A stretch of DNA of 64,000 bases from Brachynemurus nebulosus (Eukaryota > Arthropoda > Insecta > Neuroptera > Myrmeleontidae): NCBI GenBank assembly GCA_035578155.1, contig JAPWDM010000045.1:2240501-2304500 (forward strand). The letters run 5' to 3'. Shown piece after piece: positions 5,710 to 60,335 of the stretch. Position 1 is the first letter of the stretch; each line of letters starts with the position of its first letter. Both the position numbers and the translations under genes were made by a program. The notes beneath the pieces were generated by a model. The model had not been told where the DNA came from and did no database searches. It worked only from the letters and a program-made list of their open reading frames with translations.

Positions 5710-8700
5710 ATGTGTCATGAAGACGAAAATGACGTCTATTCGATATTTAAATTTTTACATTTTGTGTTAGCAGTAACTGGATCATTTCGCTACCCATTGG
5801 AACACCATGAACGATTTAAGCCAATAGTTTTAATTTTGCAATTCATTTTAACTTGTCTTAATATTTACAGTACTTTACGATTGTTCACTGACTTCGAAGT
5901 ATGGCATTCTCTCGTAATTTCATTTGTAATTACATACAATTATGCAGTATTCTATATTACGTCGAATATAAATCTAATTTTATTTGGAGTAATACACTTT
6001 AAGAAATATTGTTCAATTTTTAAAGAAATTGATTTTATTGATAAAAAGTTAGCGATGGTGGTACGTTTAAAAAATATCTCAAAATATAAAGTGATCATAA
6101 AAATTTTGTTGGTTTTCTGGATTTGTTACGTTTTATGTTTATTCAGTTTAGATGTTCTTGCACTATTTGTTGAGTTTACAGAAATACAATATACTGTCGG
6201 ATTAGCCGTGCAATATGTAGTATATTATTTTGGTTTTATGTGGACCATCATAAAAATTATGGAATTTAATTGTTTATTGTGGTTCCTAAATAAATATATT
6301 AATGGAATAAATAATTTACTTCGAAGTAGTAATCATTTGAATGTATTTAACCTAATAGATTCTATCGATTGTTCGAAGATATTATTGAAATGTTATGAAA
6401 TCGTTAAAAAAATTAATCAGTTGTTTGAACTGACAATTTTAAATTTTGTTACAGTACTGTATGTAAATGCTTTATTAATTCTTTTTATATTTAGTACATT
6501 TTCGTTCAAAGACTTACCATATTCAATCTATATGTTAACTATATCGTTATGTTTCCAAATTCCTCTGTTTTATTTAATGTGTCAACACAACGGAAATACT
6601 GTAAGTAATTTTATTTACTGTTGAAACTGTTGAATTTGGTGACTTTTTTTAAAAAAAGTTATTTAACCCAATTTTTTATTTACTAAGTATTACTAACACT
6701 TTCATTGACTATCACGCGCTAACGCGTGACACGGCTATTTTAATATATGCCTAATCGCGCGATATCGTATGATAAATATAAGAACCTACTTAATCGCACT
6801 TTGCGTACGCAAATTAACAATAAAATACACAATAGTATATTGTGCAACAAGTGCGGAAAGTTGTCGATTGCTCACTTGAGTGAAGTTGAGCGCATGATCG
6901 AAGTGAGTGCACTCAACTTCGCTCCAGTGGGCAATCAAAAACATTGCTGGTATTGCATAGGTATACTATTTTTTATAACTTTTTAAAATAGTATTTTTAA
7001 GTGTGTGTCTGTTTTTAGTTAATAATGCTTGAATTATTTTTATTAGTGGTTTCTATAGAAATGATGATAAGGGTATTTATTAAATGAAAACTCAATCTGA
7101 CCTTGCGGGTTTTCCATGACTATGCGTCTCTCCTATGCCTATAACGAATAAATGCACCAAATAACTTTTACCATTTTTGAAACTTATGAAAATATTTGAA
7201 CTTGAAACTTATGAAAATATAAAATAGGTTATAAATTGGTCATAATTAGTCAATCAGTTCTATTAATTTGGTCTGCAAAAGAACAAATTTTATTTAAAAG
7301 TTATTCAAGAATTATACAAAAATTTATTTGGAGGAATACTGATAATGTTAAGCAAAACTGTTGCGAAGTTAACACTCAAACAAATTTTGTTTTATATTTG
7401 TCATTCCTATACTATACATCTCGGATACCATACATATCGGAAATTACATTTGAACTTATAAACTTGATTGGTTAGATCAGTGGTTCCCAAACTGGTCTAT
7501 ATCGACTCCCAGGGGTCGATAACGACGTGCAAGGGGTCCACGTTGGCGAAAAAAAATTGGGAGTCGATGAGATCTAAATGGGGGTCTATAGCAACAGAGT
7601 AGATGTATAGAGAGGTAGGTTCGTTTTGTTGTTCTAAAATGTAAAAATTAAAAATTGGACACCTTTTTTTTTGGTCGTCACCTGCATTGGAAGATTGGGA
7701 GCGAGTTGTTGATTTGCTTGTCGGCGGCAGCAGGTGGAGAGCAAAAAAAAAAAGAAAACAAGCCATCAAGTGGAAGTTATACTTGCGGCAACAATGTTCC
7801 GTACAATTAGTTGTTTCTTTAAATTTTTTGTAACGGAATATGAAAGTAGATGAAATATTTTTTCTAATGAATTTTACGTCGGTTTACGTTTATCAAAATT
7901 GAACAGTGATATTTACTAAATGAACTAACAAAATTTTGCAAATATTAGATAATATTTAGGTATGTAATTAGGCATTAAAATAGACAGAAATTGTAATGTT
8001 TTTCGGGTACAGATTTATCAGCTATTCCTTACTTCTTTAATTTTTAAAACTCACTTTATAAAAAAATTACCAAAATACTCGTTTAACATAATACTAATAC
8101 AATTACTGATTAATAACATCTTGATCAAAGCAAAATATGTCATCAACTTTTATTTTTACATACCAAGAAAGTTGTGCAAGGAAAGTCAGTATCCGGACAA
8201 TCGCCACCACTGACAATCGTCACCTGTTTTATATTTTTGATGCTTGTAAAAAGGGTACCCTATCAATCACCACTACTGACAATTGCCACCAGTTTTATAT
8301 TTTAGGTCGTTGTAGAGACGAACTTGTCCTTACATATTATTTAACAAGAGGACTTTAAAGCAATAAAGTTTTACAAGTCAGTTTTACACTGGAACAAAAT
8401 ATTATACTAAATAAAATACAGGGTAAAACAGGGATAGATGGCCATGATTTTTTCAAAAGCCAATAGCGGAGCCAATTATGGCTATAAAAATCTGGAAAAT
8501 TTACAGAAACTGCTTCATGTAACTGTGAACCAAAATACGAGTTCCTTAATAAAGTAAGATCTTAGTTTAAAAAAATAAACTTTTTATAATTACGTAACAC
8601 TTGGCCATCTCACCCGTATATAGGGCTTAGATGGCCATATACCAAAGTTATAGGAAACTAGCCCACAAAATTCCTAAAAACGAAGGAGGAATTGTACTAA

Positions 8701-9160
8701 AAAGTTAATAATTTGTTTACATGTGTTTCTTAATGCATATATACATGCATAGGAAAAGGATTCTGTAACCTTTTTAGTCATTTTAACTTTAATTATAGCA
8801 CTTTTTAGATCTTCTTCTGTCTATCTGCCTTTAGTGGAATCAGGTCTAGGACCCGATATATTTGGTAAAAAAATTAAATATGTTAGAATAAACTATTAAA
8901 CAGGCGTTCAACTAACCCAATGATAGTATGACCATCTGTCCCAAACATCAGGAACAATGACCATAATGGGTCAACAAATATGGCCGACGAGAATGTCGGC
9001 AGCTAGAATACAGGGTGTAAAACAAATAACTCTCGTCCTTTTGTGGGGCGACTTATAGCACCGTGTAGACACTAAAATCGCAGGATTTTTTTCGGAATTA
9101 ACAGTCGCGTCACCCCTGAAAAGGATAAGTGTTATGTCCTTTACACCCTGTATATAATAT

Positions 9161-9238
<78 letters not shown>

Positions 9239-11235
9239 ATATATTATATACAGGGTGTAAAGGAAATAACTCTTATCCTTTTGAGGGGTGACGCGACTGT
9301 TAATTCCGAAAAAATTCCTGCGGTTTTAGTGTCTACAGGGTGCTATGGGTCACCCCACAAAAGGACGAGAGTTATTTGTTTTACACCCTGTATAATTATA
9401 TTACTGAATTCGTGCTTTAATAGCCTTTCATTTGATACCTTACTCGATATTCTTGTCCGAAAATTTTGTTTTTACTTTCCAGATTATATCCCCTAAAATT
9501 AACCCCCAGATTCGAAATTCAACTTCACATCTGTAATTAGGTCACTACACCTTATCGCCGTGTTAAGTTTCAAATTTTCGCGTTGAGTAGTTTCAGAGGA
9601 AATTGCCTGTGACACTCGGACAGACATCAAAGTGATTGTATAAGTGCTTCGTTTTTCCAATTTTGGTACGGAACACTAAAAAGGTCATCAACATCTCATT
9701 TTGGAGAATTTTCGAAGTTGTTTTACTGAATTTCTGAATTTGTACAGAGGGTCTATTTAAAATCGAAAACAATGTCAGGGGATTGACGCGACAAAGAAGT
9801 TTGGGAACCACTGGGTTAGATAAACATGATGTTAAAATTTTCATTGTAATACGTTATTTTTTGTTTTACTCGACTTAATAGCGTTTGACCTTGTAGATAT
9901 ATGACACTAGACAGCTTTGTTTACAGGAAAATTTTAAAATTTTTGATAGTGTTTTTTAGTTCTATTGACCAAAATCGCCACAAGCTTTTGTATTTTTAGA
10001 CAGGCCTGATTCTGATCTCAACTGAGCGCTTTTCTATTATAAAGCCGCTTCTACAGTCGTGTTGAGACTAAAAAAATATCATGGCCACCCTTTGATTTGT
10101 CTCTTTTTATTATTACTCTTCTCTTTCTAAAATAAATTAGCAGATTTATATCTCTATAGTTAACCAGTGACTTTTTAACAAAATGCTATTATATGATTTA
10201 ATTTAAATAAAATTTAAGTCAATTTAAATAAAATTGTCGTATAATTTTTTGATAAAAATAAGCAAATATTAATTTAAAATACTATAAGCAATGAGCCATT
10301 TTCTCAAAATGGTATGTAATAGTCTGACACCAGGGCAGCGACACAGGTAATTTGGGACTACATCTCTATGATTGAAATTTAAATTTAAAAATTACTAAGT
10401 AACCGCATAAGAAAATTGTTTAACACCAGGGCGGCGACACGGGTTATTCGGTACTATATCTATAGTTGGAATATTAATTTCTAAAAAAAAAACAATATTC
10501 CTAGGTAACCGAATTGGAAAATTTCGTTGCTAAAGTGGAATTAACAGACAGTGATTTTTGGTTGGTTAAATTAATATCTCGATTATAGACATGTAATCCC
10601 AGATACCTGTGTCGCCGCCCTGGTGACAGATTGCTACATATTTGAGAAAATGGTCCATTCCAAATATTGTAGAATAGCTCCGAATAGTATTAAATACATA
10701 GATATATAATCTACTATAGTTAAATATGCAGAACACCCTTCTTATTTCGTACCTCAGTTTTCAAGCTTTTTTTAGTCTCAATACGATAGTACTTATACTA
10801 TTTTTTTTAACTTACAGATCTCAGAAGTGACCGATACAATTTTCTACGTAGCTTTGAGGAACAAAAATGTGGAAGATTTATGCAAAGTAAAATTTTAATA
10901 AATTTATTTATGATATTTATATGAAAAATTGTTGAAATTTCTTTATAGTTGAAATCACTGGCTTTACAAATGCAACATCAAAAACCGACACTTTCAATAT
11001 TTGGATTATTTTACTTGGATAATAAATTCATCGTTGAGGTAAAATGTATAGGTGTACTATTTTTTATTAAATAGACACATTTTGAAATTTTCCTCTTTCA
11101 TTTCTATTTCAGATAGTTTTGAGCATTATTAATTGCGTCGTCATTTTATTGCAGTTTCATCAATATGAAATTAGCAGCTTTCAGGCGAACGACAACAGTT
11201 TACACAATAAGACAATACTAAAGCCCGAAATATAA
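5710..11235 (+). CDS. Insect gustatory receptor (7-transmembrane chemoreceptor), four exons
   Basis: Seen: exon 1 is 5710-6600 (297 codons, ending at the donor GTAAGT), exon 2 is 10818-10886, exon 3 is 10949-11038 and exon 4 is 11113-11235 (stop TAA). All introns are GT-AG and phase 0, giving about 390 residues, the usual length for the insect Gr family. Exon 1 is rich in hydrophobic spans at about residues 38-58, 67-92, 128-152, 163-185, 244-265 and 272-290. The last span lies in exon 4, so seven fit the family. The C-terminus has the family pattern: exon 3 carries HQKPTLSIFGLFYLD, and exon 4 carries CVVILLQF where most members have TYhhhhhQF, with NC in place of TY. Known: Grs are ligand-gated cation channels in the membrane of taste neurons. 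Ligand and subtype (sugar, CO2, bitter) cannot be told from sequence. Intron 1 is 4.2 kb because of transposon insertions, while introns 2 and 3 are 62 and 74 bp. The frame is intact through all four exons, so the gene is probably functional. An odorant receptor is less likely given the C-terminal motif. Confidence 0.88.
6690..6790. repeat. Degraded partial copy of the 4200-4352 MITE
   Basis: It contains TAACACTTTCATTG followed by ATCACGCG, GTGACACGGCTA and GATAAATATAAGAACCT blocks in the same order as in the 4200-4352 element. The right end is missing. It lies in the first intron of the receptor gene. Confidence 0.6.
6863..6938. repeat. Hairpin in receptor intron 1
   Basis: Imperfect inverted repeat: GATTGCTCACTTGAGTGAAG on the left pairs with CTTCGCTCCAGTGGGCAATC on the right, with a short spacer of further AAGTGAG/CACT-like motifs. 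It could be a remnant of a foldback element. No function is inferred. Confidence 0.6.
7478..9813. mobile_element. hAT-superfamily element in the receptor intron, 8-bp target duplication
   Basis: The 5' end is CAGTGGTTCCCAAACTGG and the 3' end is AGTTTGGGAACCACTG, the classic hAT terminal motif. Both sides carry the identical octamer GGTTAGAT (7470-7477 and 9814-9821), the 8-bp duplication expected of hAT transposition. Length is 2336 bp. No intact transposase is present. The interior has a ~70-bp direct repeat (about 8195-8310), a nested pair of inverted MITEs with an (AT)n tract (9011-9390), and blocks shared with the relic at 17310-19725. The insertion is inside intron 1 of the receptor and leaves its splice sites untouched. 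Confidence 0.85.
9011..9390. repeat. Inverted pair of 140-bp CAGGGTGTAAA elements joined by AC/AT microsatellite
   Basis: Copy 1 is 9011-9150 and copy 2 is 9249-9390, in opposite orientation. Each begins CAGGGTGTAAA and ends TTTACACCCTG, with TA at the outer junctions. They are separated by (AC)n/(AT)n. The interiors match as reverse complements with scattered substitutions. Each half looks like a TA-flanked MITE, and together they form a long palindrome nested in the hAT element. Confidence 0.75.
10054..10789. mobile_element. MITE-like element at the 3' end of receptor intron 1
   Basis: The ends share an inverted ~23-bp motif: TTGAGACTAAAAAA near 10061 and TTTTTTAGTCTCAA near 10768. The interior carries three copies of a block with ACCAGGGCGGCGACACGGGT. 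Two are direct (about 10330 and 10424) and one is inverted (about 10607-10640). No coding capacity. The right end lies only ~30 bp upstream of the exon 2 acceptor. Confidence 0.55.
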
Positions 11236-24258: not shown

Positions 24259-24376
24259 TTTGTAGGTATTATAGAGATTATTATGTAGGTATTTATAGTT
24301 TTGGAGATTTTGTGATAGATGAGTGAGTGTATGAGTGGTATTTCGCATTCATATATCTATATCTATATCTATATCT

Positions 24377-24470
<94 letters not shown>

Positions 24471-24593
24471 AGATATAGATATAGATATAGATATAGATAT
24501 ATGAATGCGAAATACCACTCATACACTCACTCATCTATCACAAAATCTCCAAAACTATAAATACCTACATAATAATCTCTATAATACCTACAA
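24259..24593. repeat. Perfect-looking palindrome centred on AT microsatellite
   Basis: The left arm (TTTGTAGGTATTATAGAGAT through TGAGTGGTATTTCGCATTCA) is mirrored in the right arm with almost no difference. The centre is (CTATAT)n, then (AT)n, then (ATAGAT)n, itself symmetric. The arms are about 155 bp. A palindrome this exact is recent or maintained, or could be an assembly artefact at a microsatellite. Confidence 0.85.
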
Positions 24594-24630
24594 ATATTAC
24601 AGAAGATATAATTGCATTACAATTTGATCC

Positions 24631-39149: not shown

Positions 39150-39266
39150 CCAATTTTAAAATTAAAAATCACAAAGTGATTGAAAAAATTAGCCGGATCG
39201 GCCGGGAATCGAACCCAGGATCTTCTGGTAACTAACCAGACGTGCTAACCTCTACGCCAACGATCC
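39150..39266 (-). mobile_element. tRNA-derived SINE, copy 1
   Basis: The head (39195-39266, minus strand) folds as a 72-nt cloverleaf. The acceptor stem pairs at 6 of 7, the anticodon stem is TCTGG/CCAGA with loop TTAGTTA (anticodon AGT, threonine), and the T arm is CTGGG-TTCGATT-CCCGG. A box (GGCGTAGAGG) and B box (GGTTCGATTCC) are intact. The D stem has a C-A mismatch and position 37 is T, unusual for a working tRNA. It is followed by TTTTTTCAATCACTTTGTGA, which also follows the tRNA-like head at 60261-60332. A shared tail indicates a SINE family rather than a tRNA gene. Confidence 0.7.
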
Positions 39267-45407: not shown

Positions 45408-46888
45408 AAAGGGTATCCCGGAATAAGAATAGCCGATTGGCCCCCAGACGAGATTTTCAACGACACTTTGGCTACTATAAGAGCAGCTGATAAGAAGTCT
45501 TGCGTGCAAGTTTTAGCCTAATATCTTACGTAGTATAGAAGTTATTTGTGAGAATAGGTATTAAGGCCATGATTTTTTAAATCTTTACATCTCGTAAACT
45601 ATTACAGATATTTAAATGAATTAAAAACCATTGAGTAGATCTAAGTTAGTACTATAATATATATTTCTTTCAAATTCTTCCGTTTGTAAACAATCATAGA
45701 ATTCGAGAAAAAATATAGAAAGATACTTTTTTAGTGGTTCCTTCAGAGTGACAATCACGAAAAAAGCCTCAAATATTGCGCATTAGGTTCTGTTTAAATA
45801 CTGCAAGTTCCGTTAAAAACAAAAGGGTGGAACACTCTCAAAGAGGAGAAACCTCGATCGAAGCCACCATCGGAATGATGAATTTCATTATTCCGTTAAG
45901 TGTTTATACCATGCGCACAAGATTAATTTAGAAGCTGGTGGTGTTTTAACGATACCTACCCATATACCGATCATGACCCCCAAATATACAATGTGTTCAA
46001 GGCTAGGTGAGGCTGATATATAAATGTGTAACAAAATTTTTGCTACGATAACGGTCATATTTCTTGACCGACATAGCTACTATTTGGTATTGTAACTGCT
46101 TACGTCAAGTTCTAGGCTAAGTTTGTAGATTGAGTTGATCGTCAATATGGGACGGTTTCAAAATGGCGACTTTTCATTATTAATGAATTTATTATTATTT
46201 TATTAAATTATTGTCATTTTGAAAGGATTCAAGGAAAGGAGCTCCTTTGAACAACTTAAACCTTGACCCCGATTGTAATTATAACAAAATTAAGCTGTCA
46301 TCCGAGAAACGTAACCGCTTCCACAACTCTCATACTTCAGTATACATTTCGGTATTTGCCTACTATACTATGATTGTATATCTATTTAGAGTTAATGATC
46401 AGTAAATATTAAAACTGAAATTTAGCTCGTAGATAGGTATAACTGATTAAATAGTTTCTCAAATGACAACAATTTTAAACTTAAAATTCTCAACATTTTG
46501 AAACTGTCCCATATTGTCAATCAACTCCATTTATGAAGTTAGTCTAGAACTTAAGTTAAACAGTTGCATTGCCAAATTTCGGCTCGATTGGTTACGAAAT
46601 ATTACCTTGAACACATTGTATATTTGGGGGTCATGATCGGTATCTCGGTACATATCGTTAAAAAACCACCAGGTTTTTAATTAATCTTGTGCGCATGGCA
46701 TAAACACAAAACGAAATGATGAAAACCATCTTTTCGATAGTGGCTTCGATCGAGTTTTCTCCTCTTTGACAATGTTCCACCCTTTTGTTTTTAACGAAAC
46801 TTGCATTGCTTAAACTTGCCCTAATGTACAATATTTGAGGCTTTTTTCGTGATTGTTACTCTGAAGGAACCACTAAAAAAGTATCTTT
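45408..46888. mobile_element. Host foldback element, left part (interrupted by the Polinton-like insert)
   Basis: The left end AAAGGGTATCCCGG is mirrored at 53898-53911 on the other side of the large insert. The foldback's left arm (45408 to about 46200) pairs first with about 46490-46882 and then, across the insert, with 53562-53911. Shared outer blocks include GGCCCCCAGACGAGATTTTC, AACGACACTTTGGCTACTAT and GTTTACGAGAT.TAAA. The right outer arm carries one extra copy of a 30-bp AACTTCTAAACTACGCAAGA unit. Without the insert the element is about 1.83 kb. Confidence 0.85.
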
Positions 46889-47692
46889 AGTAGTAGGAAT
46901 ATGGGCATTCTGGAGCCTCCTTCCCTCCTGCCGACTTTTTGAGTGACCTCGGCAGGAGGCAAAACTACCGAGGCGGTTCTAGAAGCCTCCGGCGGTGGGT
47001 GGAGCAAAACTTGGTCTCCAACCTAACGATATCTAGTGAAATTTTTTTCTAACCTAACAGAACCCAATGGAACTTGACCTAACCTAACGAAACCTAAGCG
47101 AACTTAGCTTAACCTAACAAAATTTTTTCTAACCTAAGAACTGAAAAATTCCCTAACAGATGGCGCAGCCACCTTCGAGCCCTGTGAATTCGCTACTAGA
47201 TGGCGTTGCTAGTCTGGATTCCTGTGTGTAAGTTTGAAAAATTGTCAACAGATGGCATCGAAAACCTTTTTTTGATAGTTAAACTAGCTATTAAAAGATG
47301 ACCTTGCTTTCATAATTTTATAATATTTTTATCTGAAAACAGGCTTAAACTGTCAGCTGACGTCACTAAAGGTAAACTGATATCAAACAGCGAAGATTTC
47401 TCTCTAATATGCGAAAATGAATTTTATCATATGATTGTATATTTTTATCTGAAAACAGGTTTAAACTTGTATAAATTGCCAGCTGACGTCACTAAAGGTA
47501 AACTGATATCAAATAGCGAAAATTTCTGTCTAATATGTGAAAATGAAGCAGCAGGTTTTAACCTGTATGGCTACATAAAGTGTGACAGCTGACGTCACCA
47601 TACTATTTTTTCTGCTATAAAAAGGGCGCGACAGAATTTCATCAATTACAATTTTGTTCGAAACTTTAGTGGAAAAAACATTAAACCTTATT
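46889..47692 (+). repeat. Left TIR of the Polinton-like element
   Basis: About 804 bp matching 52753-53555 inverted. Sub-regions from the outside in: terminal AGTAGTAGGAATATGGG; a GC-rich block with CTCCTGCCGACTTTTTGAGT and CTCGGCAGGAGG (a hairpin) to about 46990; a stretch of interspersed CCTAAC motifs (46995-47145); two AACAGATGGC direct repeats; a pair of ~75-bp direct repeats (about 47350-47425 and 47475-47550); then the promoter. The only coding-relevant difference noted between the arms is a G-to-A change near 47301 that creates a stop in the left copy of a shared frame. Confidence 0.9.
47358..47650 (+). promoter_or_regulatory. Inward promoter in the left TIR: three CRE octamers plus TATA box
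   Basis: Perfect TGACGTCA octamers lie at 47358-47365, 47484-47491 and 47590-47597, each preceded by AGC. TATAAAAA follows at 47616-47623, and a likely start site lies near 47640-47650 (TTCATCAATT). TGACGTCA is the palindromic binding site of CREB/ATF bZIP proteins. Three exact copies in 240 bp, the last 19 bp upstream of the TATA box, is a textbook inducible promoter layout. It would transcribe into the element towards the plus-strand ORFs. Confidence 0.75.
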
Positions 47693-47954
47693 TCACGAAG
47701 AATTTTTTCAACCTTCTCCCAAATTGCGTGGACTAGCTTTATAGAAGGATGGACGTAATGAAACCAATATCTTCTATTTCATAGCTTTTCTTTATTAAAA
47801 TTGCCAAAATATTTTCGATATGTTTAATATCATCTTCAGTGGCTAAACATCAAAAAAAAAAAATTTTTTTTTTTTACAACGTAATAATAAACAATAACAT
47901 CATTTTTATATATTTACAATTCTTCGTTAACTTATACTATTATTTTTTAGGTTA

Positions 47955-48115
47955 TAATTTTTTGGGAGTGACTCTTTTTTGGGAGTGACTCTTTTTTTGG
48001 GAGTGGCTCTTTTTTGAGAGTGGCTCTTTGATGTCATTTGGTGTCATTTTGATGCACTTTGGTGTCATTTGATGCATTTTGGTGTAAATTTGGTGTATTT
48101 TTGGTGTTTAAACTC
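47955..48115. repeat. Two short tandem arrays upstream of ORF1
   Basis: At 47966-48030, four ~20-bp units of GGGAGTG(A/G)CTCTTTTTT. At 48030-48115, five units of the type TTTGGTGTCATTTTGATGCA with decreasing fidelity. Both are in the predicted 5' leader of the plus-strand transcript. Confidence 0.85.
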
Positions 48116-48162
48116 AGCTTCCCAAGTAGTGTCAAGAGCTGGATTGATAGCAAAGACTTGGT

Positions 48163-48948
48163 ATGATATCCCCACCAACATGGAGCAGCGAATACGTATG
48201 GTGGACCGGAGCAGTCGCAATATCCCCCACCAACATGGAGCAGCGAATACGCATGATGAGCCGGAGCAGTTGCAGTATCCCCCACCAACATGGAGCAGCA
48301 TATAATGATGATGATGACGGTGAGCCGGAGCAGTTTGAATTTTTTTTCGGCGAAGCAACACCAAGTGAAAAAACAACAATGAGTGAAGATCTTCAACAGC
48401 TTATAACAATGGAGGAATCCACAGTCAAAAATCGCTTGTTGAATAAGATGTTGGATAAAGCTATCCGATTATCTGATTTGGAGATGATCCAATCGATAGG
48501 ATCAAGAGATCGTCAAATTTTTCATCCTAAAAAAATAAAATTAGCGGTTGAATGGGGCTCATCTGTGGAAACTTTCGATATTCTGTTCAACCTTACATTC
48601 GATGAATGGGACATTGGTGAAGACAGCCTAGATGGATTTGATACGTTGTCGCATTATCTTACGAAGTGGATGCGGAAAGCGATAGAGTATGCTCGTCCGA
48701 AACTGCTGCAGCATATATTGAAGCTTGTGGAAGAATATGGCGTTCTACGATTATATTTCAGTCCAAAGTGTGTAGAAGGAGACGCCGAATTGTTGAAGTG
48801 GATCACACACAACATTGAAAAAGGTGAAACCAATCAATCAGCACTCCTGGGCTGGGAAAGTGGTCCGGATACGGGAGCGTGGCCGTCGACAAACTTACAA
48901 GATTACTTAGATATATACAAAATTTTACAAACTAATTTTAATATTTAA
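48163..48948 (+). CDS. Polinton-like element ORF1, unknown acidic protein (261 residues or shorter)
   Basis: Not recognised. The frame is open for 261 codons to TAA at 48946-48948. The first ~45 residues come from three 55-bp DNA repeats read in successive frames, so the true start is probably later. The ATG in the context AACAATGAGTGAAG (MSEDLQQL, near 48379) gives about 190 residues. After an Asp/Glu-rich patch (NDDDDGEPEQ), the body is mixed alpha-helical and acidic, with motifs such as SVETFDILFNLTFDEWDIG and AELLKWITHNIEKGE. No signal peptide, membrane span, zinc finger or catalytic motif seen. It lies about 0.73 kb from the left-TIR promoter and is followed within ~100 bp by ORF2. It does not resemble known Polinton core genes as far as can be judged by reading. 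Confidence 0.6.
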   Translation: MISPPTWSSEYVWWTGAVAISPTNMEQRIRMMSRSSCSIPHQHGAAYNDDDDGEPEQFEFFFGEATPSEKTTMSEDLQQLITMEESTVKNRLLNKMLDKAIRLSDLEMIQSIGSRDRQIFHPKKIKLAVEWGSSVETFDILFNLTFDEWDIGEDSLDGFDTLSHYLTKWMRKAIEYARPKLLQHILKLVEEYGVLRLYFSPKCVEGDAELLKWITHNIEKGETNQSALLGWESGPDTGAWPSTNLQDYLDIYKILQTNFNI

Positions 48949-49037
48949 CATTTGAAGCAAGAAATGAAGAAAAGGAAGATAAAGCACCAGTATTTCAAAA
49001 TCAGCAGGAAGATGATACAGATCTATCTACAAGAAAC

Positions 49038-49553
49038 TTGAATACTTTTAATCAAAGTATGATGGCTGCAGCAGAAGCAATCAGACGTAAATTCCACGCT
49101 TTAAAAAACTCGCATAATATTCTACAATCGGCGAATGATGAAGATAATCGATCTGATGAACAAAAGCATTTACCATCGCCTGATAACTACAAAGAAACAA
49201 GTTTTACTCCAAAGATGGCTGGTCTCTTACAAACTGCTCTAGACATATTAATGGTCAAAGAGCTTCAGAACGCATGCGCAAAGGATGAAGAGAAAGAAAA
49301 TAAAAATTCAGGAGAAAAGGAACAACCTTCGACATCTAACTCAACAAATGGCGGAGCTAAACGTTTCAAATATGATGATGAAAATGCTAACCTTCATAAT
49401 GGCCATTCGAAACCTGTTGATAAAGAAGAAGAATATTTTGATGACCCGAACCATTTAGTTGATGAACTAAGAAGTTTAGCGACTCAGACGCAAATTGGAG
49501 AAGAAATGGTTAATACTGTGTGCAATTTGTTGGAAAGCGGATTATCTCAGTAA
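49038..49553 (+). CDS. Polinton-like element ORF2, unknown charged protein
   Basis: Not recognised. The frame runs to TAA at 49551-49553. The first ATG is at 49059 (MMAAAEAIRRKFHALKN), giving 164 residues. The frame is open upstream to the end of ORF1 without an ATG, so it may be reached by splicing or frameshifting from ORF1. Composition is very polar: a Glu/Lys-rich middle (KDEEKENKNSGEKEQPSTSN) and a possible nuclear-localisation patch (GGAKRFKYDDEN), followed by a leucine-rich helix near the C-terminus (LVDELRSLATQTQIGEEMV). It overlaps ORF3 by 34 bp in another frame. A structural or DNA-associated accessory role is possible, but nothing demonstrates it. Confidence 0.55.
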   Translation: MNTFNQSMMAAAEAIRRKFHALKNSHNILQSANDEDNRSDEQKHLPSPDNYKETSFTPKMAGLLQTALDILMVKELQNACAKDEEKENKNSGEKEQPSTSNSTNGGAKRFKYDDENANLHNGHSKPVDKEEEYFDDPNHLVDELRSLATQTQIGEEMVNTVCNLLESGLSQ

Positions 49554-49753
49554 CTAGGGAATTGGAAAAGCATGATATTATTGAACCAGTGTTAAAATAT
49601 GTATCCAATGATGATGAAAAAAAATCTGCTAGCGATAGCGAAGATACTGCGAGCGAAGGAGAAGCTGATGATGACGAGAATACAGTCGCCAACGATGGTG
49701 ATGAAAAAATTTCGGGTGAAGGGTTATACTTAAGGCCCTATAGGAGATATTAA
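49520..49753 (+). CDS. Polinton-like element ORF3, acidic tail, possibly a frameshifted continuation of ORF2
   Basis: An open frame of 77 codons ends in TAA near 49753. No ATG starts it, and it overlaps the last 34 bp of ORF2 in a different frame. The sequence is strongly acidic (SDSEDTASEGEADDDE) and ends LYLRPYRRY. A single indel or programmed frameshift near the ORF2 stop would join the two. Whether this is a broken gene or a natural frameshift cannot be decided from one copy. Confidence 0.4.
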   Translation: MQFVGKRIISVTRELEKHDIIEPVLKYVSNDDEKKSASDSEDTASEGEADDDENTVANDGDEKISGEGLYLRPYRRY

Positions 49754-49759
49754 AATAAG

Positions 49760-51930
49760 CTATCAGAATTTAATAAGTTGTTAAAAAAAATCTTTGTAAC
49801 TTTTCCAATAGCTATATGTTAATTATTTTAAAATTATATGAGTGTTGTTATTTCTTACATACCACAGTCCTTAATTCTAGTAATTCGTTAAAAAAAAAGA
49901 TCACCGAAATGATTGTTCTTACAACGAACTATGTAATGTGTATTTTCTAAGCTATTAAAATAGGTAATGTTTTTGCTTGCTCCTGAATATAGGCAATTAA
50001 ATCGCATTGTCCTATTAACATTCTGATGCGATAGAACATATGTGTAAACTATGTAATTCTTGCCAATAAGTATTCACCCATATTATTAATGATTTGCTAA
50101 TTTGAAGTATCGTTTGCACAGTAATGATCTAAAACTGCTGTGCAGGAAAGGGTTAATTAATTGAATGCAGCTTAACTCCGGAAAAAAAAATAAAATTTCG
50201 TAATCCAAAATTAAAGTTTTCATCCGCTCTTTAAAAATTATGAGAGTTATTTACTGTCCACCCTATATATAAGCATTTATTCTTATGATATAAAACTACA
50301 TTTTCAATTCGTTTGCTTAGAAATATTTGTCTGTGACTGATAATTTTTAGGTGTTTTTACAAAATTAAACTGCAAAAAAAAATAGTTTAAATGTATTTCA
50401 CTGTCTATAAAATCATAAATTTTTTTTCTCTATCATCAATAAATTAACAAACAAAAAATACTTATTCAATACCTACCTAGCTTGCTATAACTATTGTTTA
50501 TGGTAGAAAATATTGCGGGGAATATATAAACATAAGTTTCAGCGAAGTAAGAACATACAAATTTAACATGGGAAAAAATTGTTGAGATCAGAGCATGCTT
50601 GTCTTTTATGGGTATCGTTTTATATAGGCATCGATAGTTACTAAAATTTTCTTTAATTGCAAAAAAGGTAAATTTGAAAACAAAACAATAGGTGCCTAAT
50701 TTTCTACTAAGCAGTACTATTTGTTAATAAATATTTCAACATTAGATTAATATTTATTTATAGTTATCTTAATAAATTTACTGCTATTGTCTTTTATTGA
50801 CTTCTGAATATTATTTTGACGCGATATTATTTAAAATTTTGCTAATTTTTTTAATAAATAAAACACATTTTTATAAATTATAATAATATACAATATATTG
50901 GAGTATGATAATATGAGAAAAAAAAAACGCTTATTTAGCATTGATAAAATAATTTCGTATTTAAGATGAATTGCTATTACTACCGTCTTTCACAAAAAGT
51001 AGGGGTCACTTAATACCTATAGATATATTTAACTAATTTTTTAACAATAGCAAGTAATAAATTTTTTGATAAAAATAGCTATAAATTTTTTAGATAAGTT
51101 ATAAAATATTAAAAGAAAAATTTTCTTAAAATATATGGAACATTGTGCTATTAATTTAAGACTAAAAAAAATATTATGAGGAGAAATTAATGTTTCAAAA
51201 CTGTTTTAAATTCTTGATGTTACATATTCAGTTTTAAAAATATTAAGAAATATGATTTTTTACAATATATTGATATTGTAAAATATATGTTTTTTAACGG
51301 TGTAGAAGCCCGTACTTTTAACAGAGTACTGTATATATATACGAAATATTATATTACTATATATATTTAAAAAAAATTCGTTTTTATTTAATTGTTGATG
51401 ACCAAATATTTTTACATTAAATGAGTAAATTCTTATGTATTTTATAACATGATATCGCGTGATTACAGTTATATAGTAAAGTAATCGTGAGTATTTACAA
51501 GTTATTTATTTAAAAGAAAAATACACACTTAGATATTTATAACGTAAGTATGTAACAATTTTAGCTGATTTAGTTGATTAAAGATTTAGCTGATTAAATA
51601 ACATCAAAGAATATGCACACAGATTTAAAAAAAATGTACAGAGTGATACATTTTTGTAAAATTTACGAGTATATATGGTGTACCATAATTGTAAATGGAA
51701 TTTTTATATATACATCAAGTTTAAGTTATAATATCAAAAATTAGTTTGATTTCTTTTTAGGGGATCGGTGTAAATCAAAAGATCGGTTTTTTTTTTTTTT
51801 AAATTTATTTTATTAAGTATAGTTTTAAACAAAAATAGGTACACAATGATCACTTTTTTAACTTGTAAAATTTATAATTATATTAAAAATTTGTGCATAT
51901 GCAAGAAAGTGCTCTGTGAGGAATCAAAGA
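49760..51930. other. AT-rich central region of the Polinton-like element, no ORF
   Basis: 2.2 kb with poly-A/T runs and no frame over about 60 codons. Several AATAAA-like hexamers could serve as poly-A signals for transcripts converging from both TIR promoters. No core Polinton gene remnant could be read, but a heavily decayed one cannot be excluded. Confidence 0.5.
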
Positions 51931-51937
51931 TCACCAA

Positions 51938-52272
51938 TTTACCGACTTGTGTATTAAAATAGTGAAAAATTATCCAACAAACACCATTGAATTTATAGAG
52001 GTGGTTTGTAGACTTTTCAAGCGCAATTATAGACGAAATATTGGGAATATTGAGATATCGGAATATTTCTGTTGTATGGAATTTACGGATCATTACATCA
52101 ATTTTCTTCAATGTTCTTCAATGCAGTTTTCTTCAATGCAGAATTAAGAGAACTAAGTAAAGCGAAGCGTCGAGAGGAAATTATTAAACAAATTATCAAC
52201 AACTCTGAAATGCTATGTGATGAATACGAACGATTTCCACAATACATGGATTCCATTGTTGGCAATAATTAA
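51938..52272 (+). pseudogene. Polinton-like element ORF4, frameshifted small ORF
   Basis: Two overlapping frames (to 52147 and from 52072 to 52272) together look like one small gene. The first has IVKNYPTNTIEFIEVVCRLF, and the second has LSKAKRREEIIKQIINNSEM and ends MDSIVGNN. The frame changes inside a local microduplication of TTCTTCAATG at about 52106-52140, the likely cause of the break. There is no clear ATG start. Product unknown. Confidence 0.4.
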
Positions 52273-52305
52273 TTGTTAACACAACAATTGAAAATTTACA
52301 AATTT
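52247..52305 (+). repeat. Direct repeat within the Polinton-like element (copy 1 of 2)
   Basis: The ~55 bp starting ATGGATTCCATTGTTGGCAA and including ACACAACAATTGAAAATT recurs at 52693-52750. One copy ends ORF4. The other overlaps, on the opposite strand, the start of the minus-strand ORF5. Confidence 0.85.
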
Positions 52306-52703
52306 CAAGAAGATCCAACGTTTTGAATTGCGATTTCAAGAAGATCCAACGTTTTTCTGAATTCCAGTTTATGAGTTAGTCCGATTGGTCCATTATTTAT
52401 GATACCCAATTTTGGATTGCTTTGCAGCCATGCCAGCATCTGCTCGTTCAAATTGTCAAATCTCGCTGGTAACGAAATGTATCCAATTTCCAATTCCAAT
52501 ATTGTCTTCATTTTCGATGAATCGAATTTCGATGGTAGTTGACTGGCTCCCATTATTTTATATACTTTTCCAATTTGCATATCAGAAAGTTTAATCCATC
52601 GTTTAACAGCGCCAAGATGATTCAATTCATCCACAAAATTTCCAGCCATTTTTTGAATTAAGTCTCTGTTTCCAGATGAAGCACCAGCAGTAATGGATTC
52701 CAT
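52305..52703 (-). CDS. Polinton-like element ORF5, OB-fold-like small protein
   Basis: Minus strand. The ATG at 52703 (MESITAGASSGNRD) lies about 120 bp inside the right-TIR TATA box, well placed for a short leader. The product is about 132 residues. The central part reads WIKLSDMQIGKVYKI, then KTILELEIGYISLPARF. The layout (L-x-D-x-x-x-G-x-x-Y-x-I, then a strand with alternating hydrophobics, then LP-x-[RK]-[FY]) resembles, from memory, a family of short OB-fold-like proteins common in insect mobile or viral elements. That assignment is unverified. A single-stranded-DNA or RNA-binding role would be the natural guess. The open frame is intact, and the coding sense is better supported than the antisense frames. 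Confidence 0.5.
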   Translation of the reverse strand: MESITAGASSGNRDLIQKMAGNFVDELNHLGAVKRWIKLSDMQIGKVYKIMGASQLPSKFDSSKMKTILELEIGYISLPARFDNLNEQMLAWLQSNPKLGIINNGPIGLTHKLEFRKTLDLLEIAIQNVGSS

Positions 52704-52752
52704 TGTTGGCAACAATTAACTCTTAACACACAACAATTGAAAATTCACAACA

Positions 52753-53555
52753 ATAAGGTTTAATGTTTTTTCCACTAAAGTTTCGAACAAAATTGTAATT
52801 GATGAAATTCTGTCGCGCCCTTTTTATAGCAGAAAAAATAGTATGGTGACGTCAGCTGTCACACTTTATGTAGCCATACAGGTTAAAACCTGCTGCTTCA
52901 TTTTCACATATTAGACAGAAATTTTCGCTATTTGATATCAGTTTACCTTTAGTGACGTCAGCTGGCAATTTATACAAGTTTAAACCTGTTTTCAGATAAA
53001 AATATACAATCATATGATAAAATTCATTTTCGCATATTAGAGAGAAATCTTCGCTGTTTGATATCAGTTTACCTTTAGTGACGTCAGCTGACAGTTTAAG
53101 CCTGTTTTCAGATAAAAATATTATAAAATTATGAAAGCAAGGCCATCTTTTAATAGCTAGTTTAACTATCAAAAAAAGGTTTTCGATGCCATCTGTTGAC
53201 AATTTTTCAAACTTACACACAGGAATCCAGACTAGCAACGCCATCTAGTAGCGAATTCACAGGGCTCGAAGGTGGCTGCGCCATCTGTTAGGGAATTTTT
53301 CAGTTCTTAGGTTAGAAAAAATTTTGTTAGGTTAAGCTAAGTTCGCTTAGGTTTCGTTAGGTTAGGTCAAGTTCCATTGGGTTCTGTTAGGTTAGAAAAA
53401 AATTTCACTAGATATCGTTAGGTTGGAGACCAAGTTTTGCTCCACCCACCGCCGGAGGCTTCTAGAACCGCCTCGGTAGTTTTGCCTCCTGCCGAGGTCA
53501 CTCAAAAAGTCGGCAGGAGGGAAGGAGGCTCCAGAATGCCCATATTCCTACTACT
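52753..53555 (-). repeat. Right TIR of the Polinton-like element
   Basis: Inverted copy of 46889-47692, nearly identical by eye over ~803 bp. Its shared frame (53244-52852, minus strand, 130 codons) is uninterrupted here, whereas the left copy has a stop after 33 codons. That frame contains the ~75-bp direct repeat read twice in the same phase (ADVTKGKLISNSE...LICENE) and covers the promoter. It may therefore be a chance frame. Confidence 0.9.
52800..53086 (-). promoter_or_regulatory. Inward promoter in the right TIR: three CRE octamers plus TATA box
   Basis: Mirror of the left promoter. TGACGTCA lies at 53079-53086, 52953-52960 and 52847-52854, and the TATA box (TTTTTATA on the plus strand) at 52821-52828. 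Transcription would run leftwards into ORF5, whose ATG is about 90 nt beyond the expected start site. Confidence 0.75.
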
Positions 53556-53561
53556 ATCTTT

Positions 53562-60227: not shown

Positions 60228-60335
60228 AATAATCACAGAGTGATTGAAAAATTATCAAACAGGAATAACTGGGACTCGAACCTAAGATCCCTGATTATTA
60301 GCCAAGCGCCTCACTGTACCTGACTAGTAATCAAT
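60228..60335 (-). mobile_element. tRNA-derived SINE, copy 2
   Basis: The minus-strand head (about 60261-60332) retains the B box GGTTCGAGTCC and a recognisable anticodon arm (TTGG-CTAATAA-TCAG), but its acceptor and D arms are degraded. It is followed by TTTTTCAATCACTCTGTGAT, as in 39150-39266. Confidence 0.65.

What the first reader, a model, noticed from the sequence alone, without database searches (positions are those of the whole stretch)
46889..53555. Compact Polinton-like element without Polinton core genes
A 6.67-kb element has AG...CT termini, ~804-bp TIRs and a perfect 6-bp target duplication, the structural signature of Polintons. Its 5-kb interior encodes only small unfamiliar proteins. 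Either it is a Polinton-derived parasite that borrows integrase and polymerase in trans, or a separate lineage that shares Polinton-type integration. The near-identical TIRs argue for recent mobility, so it may be active.
Basis: partly seen in the sequence, partly recalled or inferred. Interest (0 to 1): 0.9.

Follow-up and report, generated by a model that had tools for sequence, protein, structure and literature searches.

The report
Truncated copy of palindromic Polinton parasite
The 6.7-kb insertion is a shortened copy of a repeated element built like a giant DNA palindrome from pieces of virus-like Polinton transposons, which seems to move only with enzymes borrowed from complete Polintons.

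Summary
46889-53555 is an insertion with AGTAGT...ACTACT ends, 804-bp TIRs (one mismatch) and duplication ATCTTT; an inverted relative of the target in the window preserves the empty site. It is a truncated member of a large family (P3-gene 51-mer 573 times, TIR 62-mer 287 times). Of 12 other copies read, 9 are 10.2-11.8 kb and palindromic, so the 804-bp TIR marks a deletion. All 10 copies with both flanks fetched have 6-bp duplications. The 136-aa ORF matches the last gene of a local Polinton (E 3e-30), the 261-aa ORF a gene beside PolB (E 3e-48); a third, P1, is a zinc-finger chimera weakly similar to two Polinton proteins. No polymerase, integrase, ATPase, protease or capsid match was found in the pieces, yet P1 and P3 look under purifying selection and arms evolve in concert. 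Best reading: a Polinton-derived, non-autonomous snap-back element mobilised in trans. A helper with this TIR was not identified; a 17-18 kb class is the candidate, but no PolB was seen in it by incomplete searches.

The parts
46883..46888 (.). left target-site duplication ATCTTT
   Evidence: empty site
53556..53561 (.). right target-site duplication ATCTTT
   Evidence: empty site
46889..47692 (+). left terminal inverted repeat (804 bp; begins AGTAGTAG; three TGACGTCA motifs); remainder of a deleted left arm
52752..53555 (-). right terminal inverted repeat, one mismatch to the left one; continuous with the intact right arm
47693..47957 (.). about 265 bp at the deletion junction with no match over 40 bp in the five longer copies compared
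   Evidence: L012, L013, L009, L018, L014; the genome search for it did not complete
47958..48100 (+). remains of the central tandem repeats (GGGAGTGACTC and TTTGGTGTCA units)
48163..48948 (+). 261-aa ORF ('SED' protein); homologue of the gene beside PolB in Polinton L071 (44% over 192 aa, E 3e-48)
48948..49535 (+). P1 gene fragment, aa 80-274; its zinc-finger start is replaced by the SED gene at a junction identical in L012 and L023
49529..49750 (+). P1 gene fragment, aa 304-377, in another frame (aa 275-303 missing): P1 is broken in this copy; ends in GEGLYLRPYRRY
49873..49999 (+). non-coding stretch with two blocks shared with the right end of Polinton L071/L072 (78% and 86%)
52305..52715 (-). 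P3: intact small gene (ATG at 52703, 132 aa), homologue of the last gene of Polinton L072 (44% over 104 aa, E 3e-30), same place and direction
45508..46002 (-). other arm of the older inverted repeat, which serves as preserved empty site

Best explanation
The insertion is a truncated member of a family of non-autonomous, palindromic Polinton derivatives. A Polinton's P3-bearing right end (terminal repeat, P3 gene, a short non-coding block) plus a chimeric gene P1 forms each arm of a head-to-head palindrome of about 10-12 kb; the middle carries tandem repeats and in some copies a second Polinton gene (SED). No polymerase or integrase was found in it. Proposed cycle: a complete Polinton's protein-primed polymerase starts at the AGTAGT ends and its integrase inserts the product with a 6-bp duplication. 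A palindrome can arise by snap-back copying of a displaced strand. Because both halves are terminal repeats, panhandle or hairpin intermediates repair one arm from the other in each round, which keeps arms identical while the asymmetric centre stays. P1 and P3 are kept by selection, so the element uses them, P3 as in the parent and P1 perhaps as a DNA-binding adaptor carrying a virion-protein tail. SHOWN: termini, TSD, empty site, palindromes, P3 and SED homology, lack of core-gene matches in the pieces read, low dN/dS, arm homogeneity. INFERRED: trans-mobilisation, protein priming, snap-back origin, roles of P1 and P3.
For: Termini and TSD: AGTAGT...ACTACT and 6 bp in the window copy and 10 of 10 others; an enzyme-bearing Polinton of this genome (L069/L070: rve, PLA2, Pox_A32 ATPase, DJR capsid, PolB) has AGTAGTTGGG ends and TSD TAAGAT. 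One palindrome end has an extra AGT unit, as slide-back priming could give (recalled). Palindromes: L009 98.3% self-inverted over 9068 bp, L015 97.3% over 8.6 kb, L012 arms 3894 bp 99.87%, L013 4250 bp 99.74%. Homologies, all pairwise against single loci: P3 E 3e-30, SED E 3e-48; weak: P1 body E 0.0007-0.002 and P1 tail to a PLA2 protein's tail E 0.004. P3 homologues lie within 20 kb of 42 of 48 PolB places that I picked, 36 of them at 9.2-11.9 kb. Core genes: 0 matches (E<=0.01) in 16 pieces of 12 copies and in the window element. Selection: P1 dN/dS 0.17-0.66 (one 0.94 at dS 0.009), P3 0.06-0.37 where dS>0.05 (no significance test). Concerted arms: 11 of 11 within-copy arm pairs 99.57-100%; C80b and C74b share one asymmetric junction and differ by 1.5-1.7% while their own arms differ by 0.2-0.4%.
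Against: No PolB- or integrase-bearing Polinton with the same TIR was found: 0 of 66 PolB-motif places fall in the 39 TIR-bounded intervals I could form, and 0 of the 8 PolB-motif places on C1 within the listed range have a listed P3 of this type within 15 kb. These tests are partial: the exact motif misses PolBs that one search shows (e.g. C77:523328), and only 100 of 287 TIR and 100 of 573 P3 places were listed. Palindromic P3 is only 44% identical to that of Polinton L071/L072, so the true parent is not the one compared. P1's link to Polinton proteins is weak by sequence. Three of 11 arm pairs (C79, C41, C117) are not sisters in the tree, being in a nearly identical group. The printed ends of C79 and C48a differ left from right, so homogenisation does not always reach the tips. 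Long inverted repeats can also be homogenised by host recombination.
Confidence: 0.75

Rival explanations
1. It is the deleted remnant of an ordinary autonomous Polinton: full-length 17-18 kb elements with the same TIR carry the enzymes, and the palindromic and short forms are decay products without a life of their own.
For: Five of 39 listed TIR pairs are spaced 17.3-18.0 kb and four of these hold a SED-B gene at 8.2-8.3 kb from the left end. Of 11 SED-B genes on C1 within the listed range, 5 have a single listed P3 of the palindrome type 7.7-8.8 kb away, one at 11.9 kb, 5 none, and 0 a pair, so that class looks asymmetric like a Polinton. SED-B rows are numerous (roughly 80 of 150 scored), so the class is not rare.
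Against: 24 of the 39 listed TIR pairs are of palindrome size against 5 long ones; palindromes have clean TSDs and keep P1 and P3 open with low dN/dS: they multiply as units. No PolB was seen in the long class, but neither search excludes one.
Confidence: 0.15
2. A foldback-type DNA transposon of another superfamily that captured Polinton gene fragments and happens to make 6-bp duplications.
For: Very long inverted repeats with internal tandem repeats resemble foldback elements (recalled). IS3EU and GingerRoot also make 6-bp duplications (PMC10045372, passages seen).
Against: IS3EU ends in TA..TA and GingerRoot mostly so, occasionally TG..CA, not AGTAGT..ACTACT; the ends match a Polinton of the same genome; P3 is the last gene and reads inward as in a Polinton, with shared non-coding blocks beside it, which fits descent of the whole end.
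Confidence: 0.05
3. The palindromes are made or homogenised after insertion by host recombination or gene conversion between inverted copies, not by the replication of the element.
For: Gene conversion between long inverted repeats is common (recalled); within-copy arm identity alone does not tell when homogenisation happens.
Against: Both ends carry one 6-bp duplication in 10 of 10 copies, so these inserted as units; 38 convergent P3 pairs are among the first 100 listed P3 places; the shared asymmetric centre shows inheritance through transposition.
Confidence: 0.1

Closest known systems
Polinton/Maverick elements (Polintoviricetes)
   Same: 6-bp TSD (PMC10045372 passages), AGTAGT start as in a local Polinton, P3 and SED homologous to Polinton genes of the same genome
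   Different: No PolB, integrase, ATPase, protease or capsid match; about 10-12 kb; almost the whole element is inverted repeat
Symmetric snap-back defective genomes of adenoviruses (recalled, no paper read)
   Same: Protein-primed relatives; a duplicated genome end joined head to head so that the ends are very long inverted repeats
   Different: Here they are integrated, apparently in the hundreds, keep two genes open and carry a new chimeric gene
Virophages and transpovirons (titles and abstract starts in listings; PMC11071308 passages)
   Same: Small DNA parasites that depend on a larger DNA virus
   Different: Here the presumed helper is a Polinton in an animal germ line, and the parasite derives from it
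IS3EU / GingerRoot DNA transposons (PMC10045372 passages)
   Same: 6-bp TSD
   Different: TA..TA (GingerRoot occasionally TG..CA) termini and own transposase
Foldback elements (recalled) and Teratorn (PMC6431247 passages)
   Same: Long inverted repeats within a mobile element
   Different: Other transposases and ends; no Polinton genes known to me

Membership tests
Polinton/Maverick (autonomous) | 6-bp target-site duplication | tested here: met
   window copy and 10 of 10 others with both flanks; empty site
Polinton/Maverick (autonomous) | ends shared with a Polinton of the genome | tested here: met
   AGTAGT in palindromes and in Polinton L069/L070; the rest of the TIR is not alike
Polinton/Maverick (autonomous) | protein-primed PolB | tested here: not met
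   0 matches in 16 pieces of 12 copies and in the window element; pieces leave out some ends
Polinton/Maverick (autonomous) | RVE integrase | tested here: not met
   0 matches
Polinton/Maverick (autonomous) | capsid, ATPase and protease genes | tested here: not met
   0 matches for MCP, mCP, ATPase, protease, PLA2
Polinton-derived non-autonomous element | genes or ends homologous to an autonomous Polinton | tested here: met
   P3 E 3e-30, SED E 3e-48, shared non-coding blocks
Polinton-derived non-autonomous element | an enzyme-bearing Polinton with the same TIR | tested here: inconclusive
   17-18 kb class with this TIR exists; no PolB seen in it (both incomplete); integrase pattern search did not complete
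Snap-back (palindromic) protein-primed genome | nearly whole genome is an inverted repeat of one end of the parent | tested here: inconclusive
   palindromy met; only P3 and two non-coding blocks of the arm are matched to a Polinton end, P1 is chimeric
Snap-back (palindromic) protein-primed genome | replication primed by a protein at the ends | not testable with these tools
   only indirect: terminal AGT repeats, one copy with an extra unit
IS3EU / GingerRoot | TA..TA (or TG..CA) termini | tested here: not met
   termini AGTAGT..ACTACT; family definition

The most novel reading that the evidence does not exclude
A true satellite of an animal Polinton virus: a palindromic mini-genome that not only borrows polymerase and integrase but is packaged or spread through Polinton virions. 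P1 would be its tool: a swappable zinc-finger start (44 of 79 residues identical between two types while the rest is 278 of 297), a body like a Polinton protein, and a tail like that of the PLA2 virion protein (GLYLxPYRR). The element would then be a hyperparasite with its own selected genes, and its variable terminal ~23 bp a possible target of the zinc finger.
Probability: 0.2. Interest if true: 0.88.

Novelty: new variant of a known kind. Interest (0 to 1): 0.68.

Why it matters
Non-autonomous DNA elements usually lose their genes (recalled); here a Polinton derivative with probably hundreds of copies (573 P3 matches) shows no core-gene match in the pieces read, and still keeps two genes open with low dN/dS in a palindromic genome whose arms are homogenised. 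It offers a natural record of snap-back replication of a protein-primed element in animals, and a concrete case in which dependence of one mobile element on another can be tested.

Tried and rejected
Pfam on the window ORFs gave nothing above cut-off. External homologues: the search for homologous proteins with P1, P3 and a P3 alignment found none; viral contigs with P3 and SED alignments found none; no solved structure matched P3 by sequence. A single-sequence fold of the window's P3 had pLDDT 40 and was discarded. I first read the 17-18 kb class as autonomous helpers; the PolB pattern did not support that, so it stays open. Two long copies (15.7 and 16.7 kb) are palindromes with nested retrotransposons (BEL/Pao-type ORF in L016, RT-like ORF in L020). 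The 39-kb TIR pair on C1 is probably two elements.

LIMITS: only 100 of 287 TIR places and 100 of 573 P3 places (all on C1, no mismatch) were listed. PF03175 scored 75 of 1288 candidates; the PolB motif pattern (66 places) misses several PolBs seen there. TSDs and the interval check were done by eye. E-values of homologies are for single loci or a handful of proteins. The tree uses one region of up to 1.85 kb, 23 arm sequences (three of them shorter) and the window. In one search the filter took only P1 ORFs with zinc finger and LRPYR tail (17 found) and P3 ORFs with MESIT (22 found); arms not caught were left out, so decayed copies are under-counted. Direct self-comparison covered eight pieces; for other copies palindromy rests. 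The 16 pieces lack the outer ~0.8 kb of several copies and about 1.8 kb of C41.
Full report
WHAT IS THERE. The insertion 46889-53555 is real. Its TIRs are 804 bp with one mismatch, it starts AGTAGTAGG and ends CCTACTACT, and ATCTTT flanks it on both sides. The target is one arm of an older inverted repeat; the other arm, 45508-46002 on the minus strand, runs through the junction at 445 of 498 columns with a single ATCTTT. The window is G000:C91:2240501-2304500 of a 960-Mb genome.

THE FAMILY. A TIR search gave 40 scored hits of 2638 candidates, many as inverted pairs about 10-11 kb apart. I read pieces of 12 copies: 9 span 10.2-11.8 kb, one 7.1 kb, and two (15.7 and 16.7 kb) carry nested retrotransposons (spans). 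The longer ones are palindromes: L009 is 98.3% self-inverted over 9068 bp, L015 97.3% over 8.6 kb, L012 has arms of 3894 bp at 99.87%, L013 of 4250 bp at 99.74%, L018 of 3411 bp at 99.88% within the piece held. The arms meet at tandem repeats. The window copy aligns with one full arm and the centre of L012 but has only 804 bp of the other arm: it is a deletion derivative. All 10 copies for which both flanks were fetched have 6-bp duplications (by eye; C117's TATATA is in a TA-rich stretch). In 8 of these 10 the printed left and right ends agree; in C79 and C48a they differ, and C48a's right end has an extra AGT unit. The ~23 bp inside the AGTAGT end vary between copies.

NUMBERS. A TIR 62-mer (up to 3 mismatches) occurs 143 + 144 times, control 0. 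From the 100 listed places I formed 39 inverted pairs: 8 at 6.7-7.8 kb, 24 at 9.0-11.9 kb, one at 15.6, five at 17.3-18.0, one at 39.2 kb. A 51-mer of the P3 gene (up to 3 mismatches) occurs 279 + 294 times, control 0; the 100 listed places, all on contig C1 and without mismatch, form 38 convergent pairs spaced 4.0-9.9 kb and 24 singles.

THE GENES. Three proteins matter. P3 (window 52305-52715, minus) is 44% identical over 104 aa (E 3e-30, against one locus) to the last gene of a Polinton of this genome, at the same end and in the same direction (L072:504-977). P3 homologues lie within 20 kb of 42 of 48 PolB places that I picked, 36 of them at 9.2-11.9 kb. SED (48163-48948) is 44% identical over 192 aa (E 3e-48) to a gene beside PolB in the same Polinton (L071:671-1348). 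P1 is 377-384 aa in other copies: a C2H2 zinc finger (zf-C2H2 E 5e-4 and 2e-5, below or just under Pfam's cut-off), a body weakly similar to a Polinton protein (E 0.0007-0.002 for the YFDDPNHLV region; some longer matches are acidic low-complexity sequence), and the tail SGEGLYLRPYRRY that resembles the tail of the PLA2 proteins of two Polintons (E 0.004 and 0.13). In the window P1 lacks its start, replaced by SED at a junction identical in L012 and L023, and lacks aa 275-303 with a change of frame: it is broken here; P3 is intact.

POLINTONS IN THE SAME GENOME. PF03175 gave 193 matches from 75 scored of 1288 candidates, many in open frames above 1300 aa. Polinton L069/L070 has rve (E 2e-8), Pox_A32 ATPase, PLA2 and double-jelly-roll capsid domains, a ~205-bp TIR, ends AGTAGTTGGG and TSD TAAGAT. 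Polinton L071/L072 has capsid (E 7e-118), ATPase and PLA2 domains above cut-off and an integrase end whose Pfam hits are below cut-off but which shares 146 residues of 191 with the L069 integrase. None of the integrase, PolB, ATPase, PLA2, protease, penton or capsid proteins matches any of 16 palindrome pieces or the window element at E<=0.01. Two non-coding blocks of about 43 and 64 bp are shared between the window element and that Polinton, between P3 and its neighbour gene. Beyond the AGTAGT tip the TIRs of the palindrome and of L069 are not alike.

SELECTION AND CONCERTED EVOLUTION. Pairwise dN/dS (NG86, no significance test) is 0.17-0.66 for P1 in 21 pairs of 7 copies (one 0.94 at dS 0.009, one pair identical) and 0.06-0.37 for P3 where dS exceeds 0.05, of 28 pairs of 8 copies (up to 0.68 at smaller dS). 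Arms of one copy are 99.57-100% identical in 11 of 11 cases; they are sisters in the tree in 8 of 11, the other three belonging to a nearly identical group. C80b and C74b share an asymmetric centre with an identical junction and differ from each other by 1.5-1.7%, while their own arms differ by 0.2-0.4%. So arms were homogenised after the asymmetric centre arose. Between haplotypes the arms are mosaics: about 1 kb between P3 and the non-coding block is unrelated in C17- and C80b-type copies, the rest is mostly 88-100% identical per 200 columns.

THE OPEN QUESTION: THE HELPER. The window's SED protein found two groups among 150 scored matches: A (mostly 92-100%, in palindromes) and B (about 68-80%). 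Four of the five 17-18 kb TIR pairs hold a group-B SED 8.2-8.3 kb from the left end. Of 11 group-B SEDs on C1 within the listed range, 5 have a single listed P3 of the palindrome type 7.7-8.8 kb away, one at 11.9 kb, 5 none and 0 a pair. This asymmetric class is the best candidate for the parent. But none of 66 PolB-motif places lies in any of the 39 TIR-bounded intervals (by eye), and 0 of 8 PolB-motif places on C1 within the listed range has a listed P3 of this type within 15 kb (two more lie beyond the list). The exact motif misses PolBs that one search shows, so this is weak evidence of absence. The integrase pattern search did not complete. The helper is inferred, not found.

MECHANISM. 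The ends, the TSD and the homologous genes argue that Polinton-type enzymes in trans move the element. A palindrome with homogenised arms is what snap-back copying and panhandle repair of a protein-primed linear genome would give, as in symmetric adenovirus defective genomes (recalled). P1 and P3 seem of use to the element, since 17 full P1 and 22 P3 frames stand open in the pieces read. The tail shared with the PLA2 protein makes a role at the virion possible, but 14 residues are thin evidence.

VERDICT. Observation confirmed; interpretation partly supported; new variant of a known kind.

Noticed in passing
window 5710-6624 (+): 304-aa ORF that looks like an insect chemoreceptor fragment (recalled, not tested).
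   Followed up: no
window 24259-24594 and 9008-9393: Small palindromes without spacer (168-bp arms 99%, 193-bp arms 93%) among 39 inverted-repeat pairs of the window, 25 shown.
   Followed up: no
window 39194-39266 and 60262-60333: tRNA-Thr and tRNA-Ile calls by ARAGORN, genes or tRNA-derived repeats.
   Followed up: no
L016:3405-7196 and L020:176-3541: BEL/Pao-type ORF (1264 aa, Peptidase_A17 E 3e-48) and a 1121-aa ORF that looks like a LINE reverse transcriptase (recalled) nested in palindrome copies.
   Followed up: partly
rows, e.g. C65:934326, C65:2557653, C58:12732294: Nine P3 homologues with one identical score (57% identity to the L072 P3): perhaps another young P3-bearing family; not checked for PolB nearby.
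   Followed up: no
window 46889-47692: Three TGACGTCA motifs in the TIR and one in the TIR of Polinton L069; CCTAACCTAA stretches in the TIR.
   Followed up: partly
L072:2553-4000: Retrotransposon-like ORFs beyond P3 (recalled, not tested); the right TIR of this Polinton was not seen.
   Followed up: no
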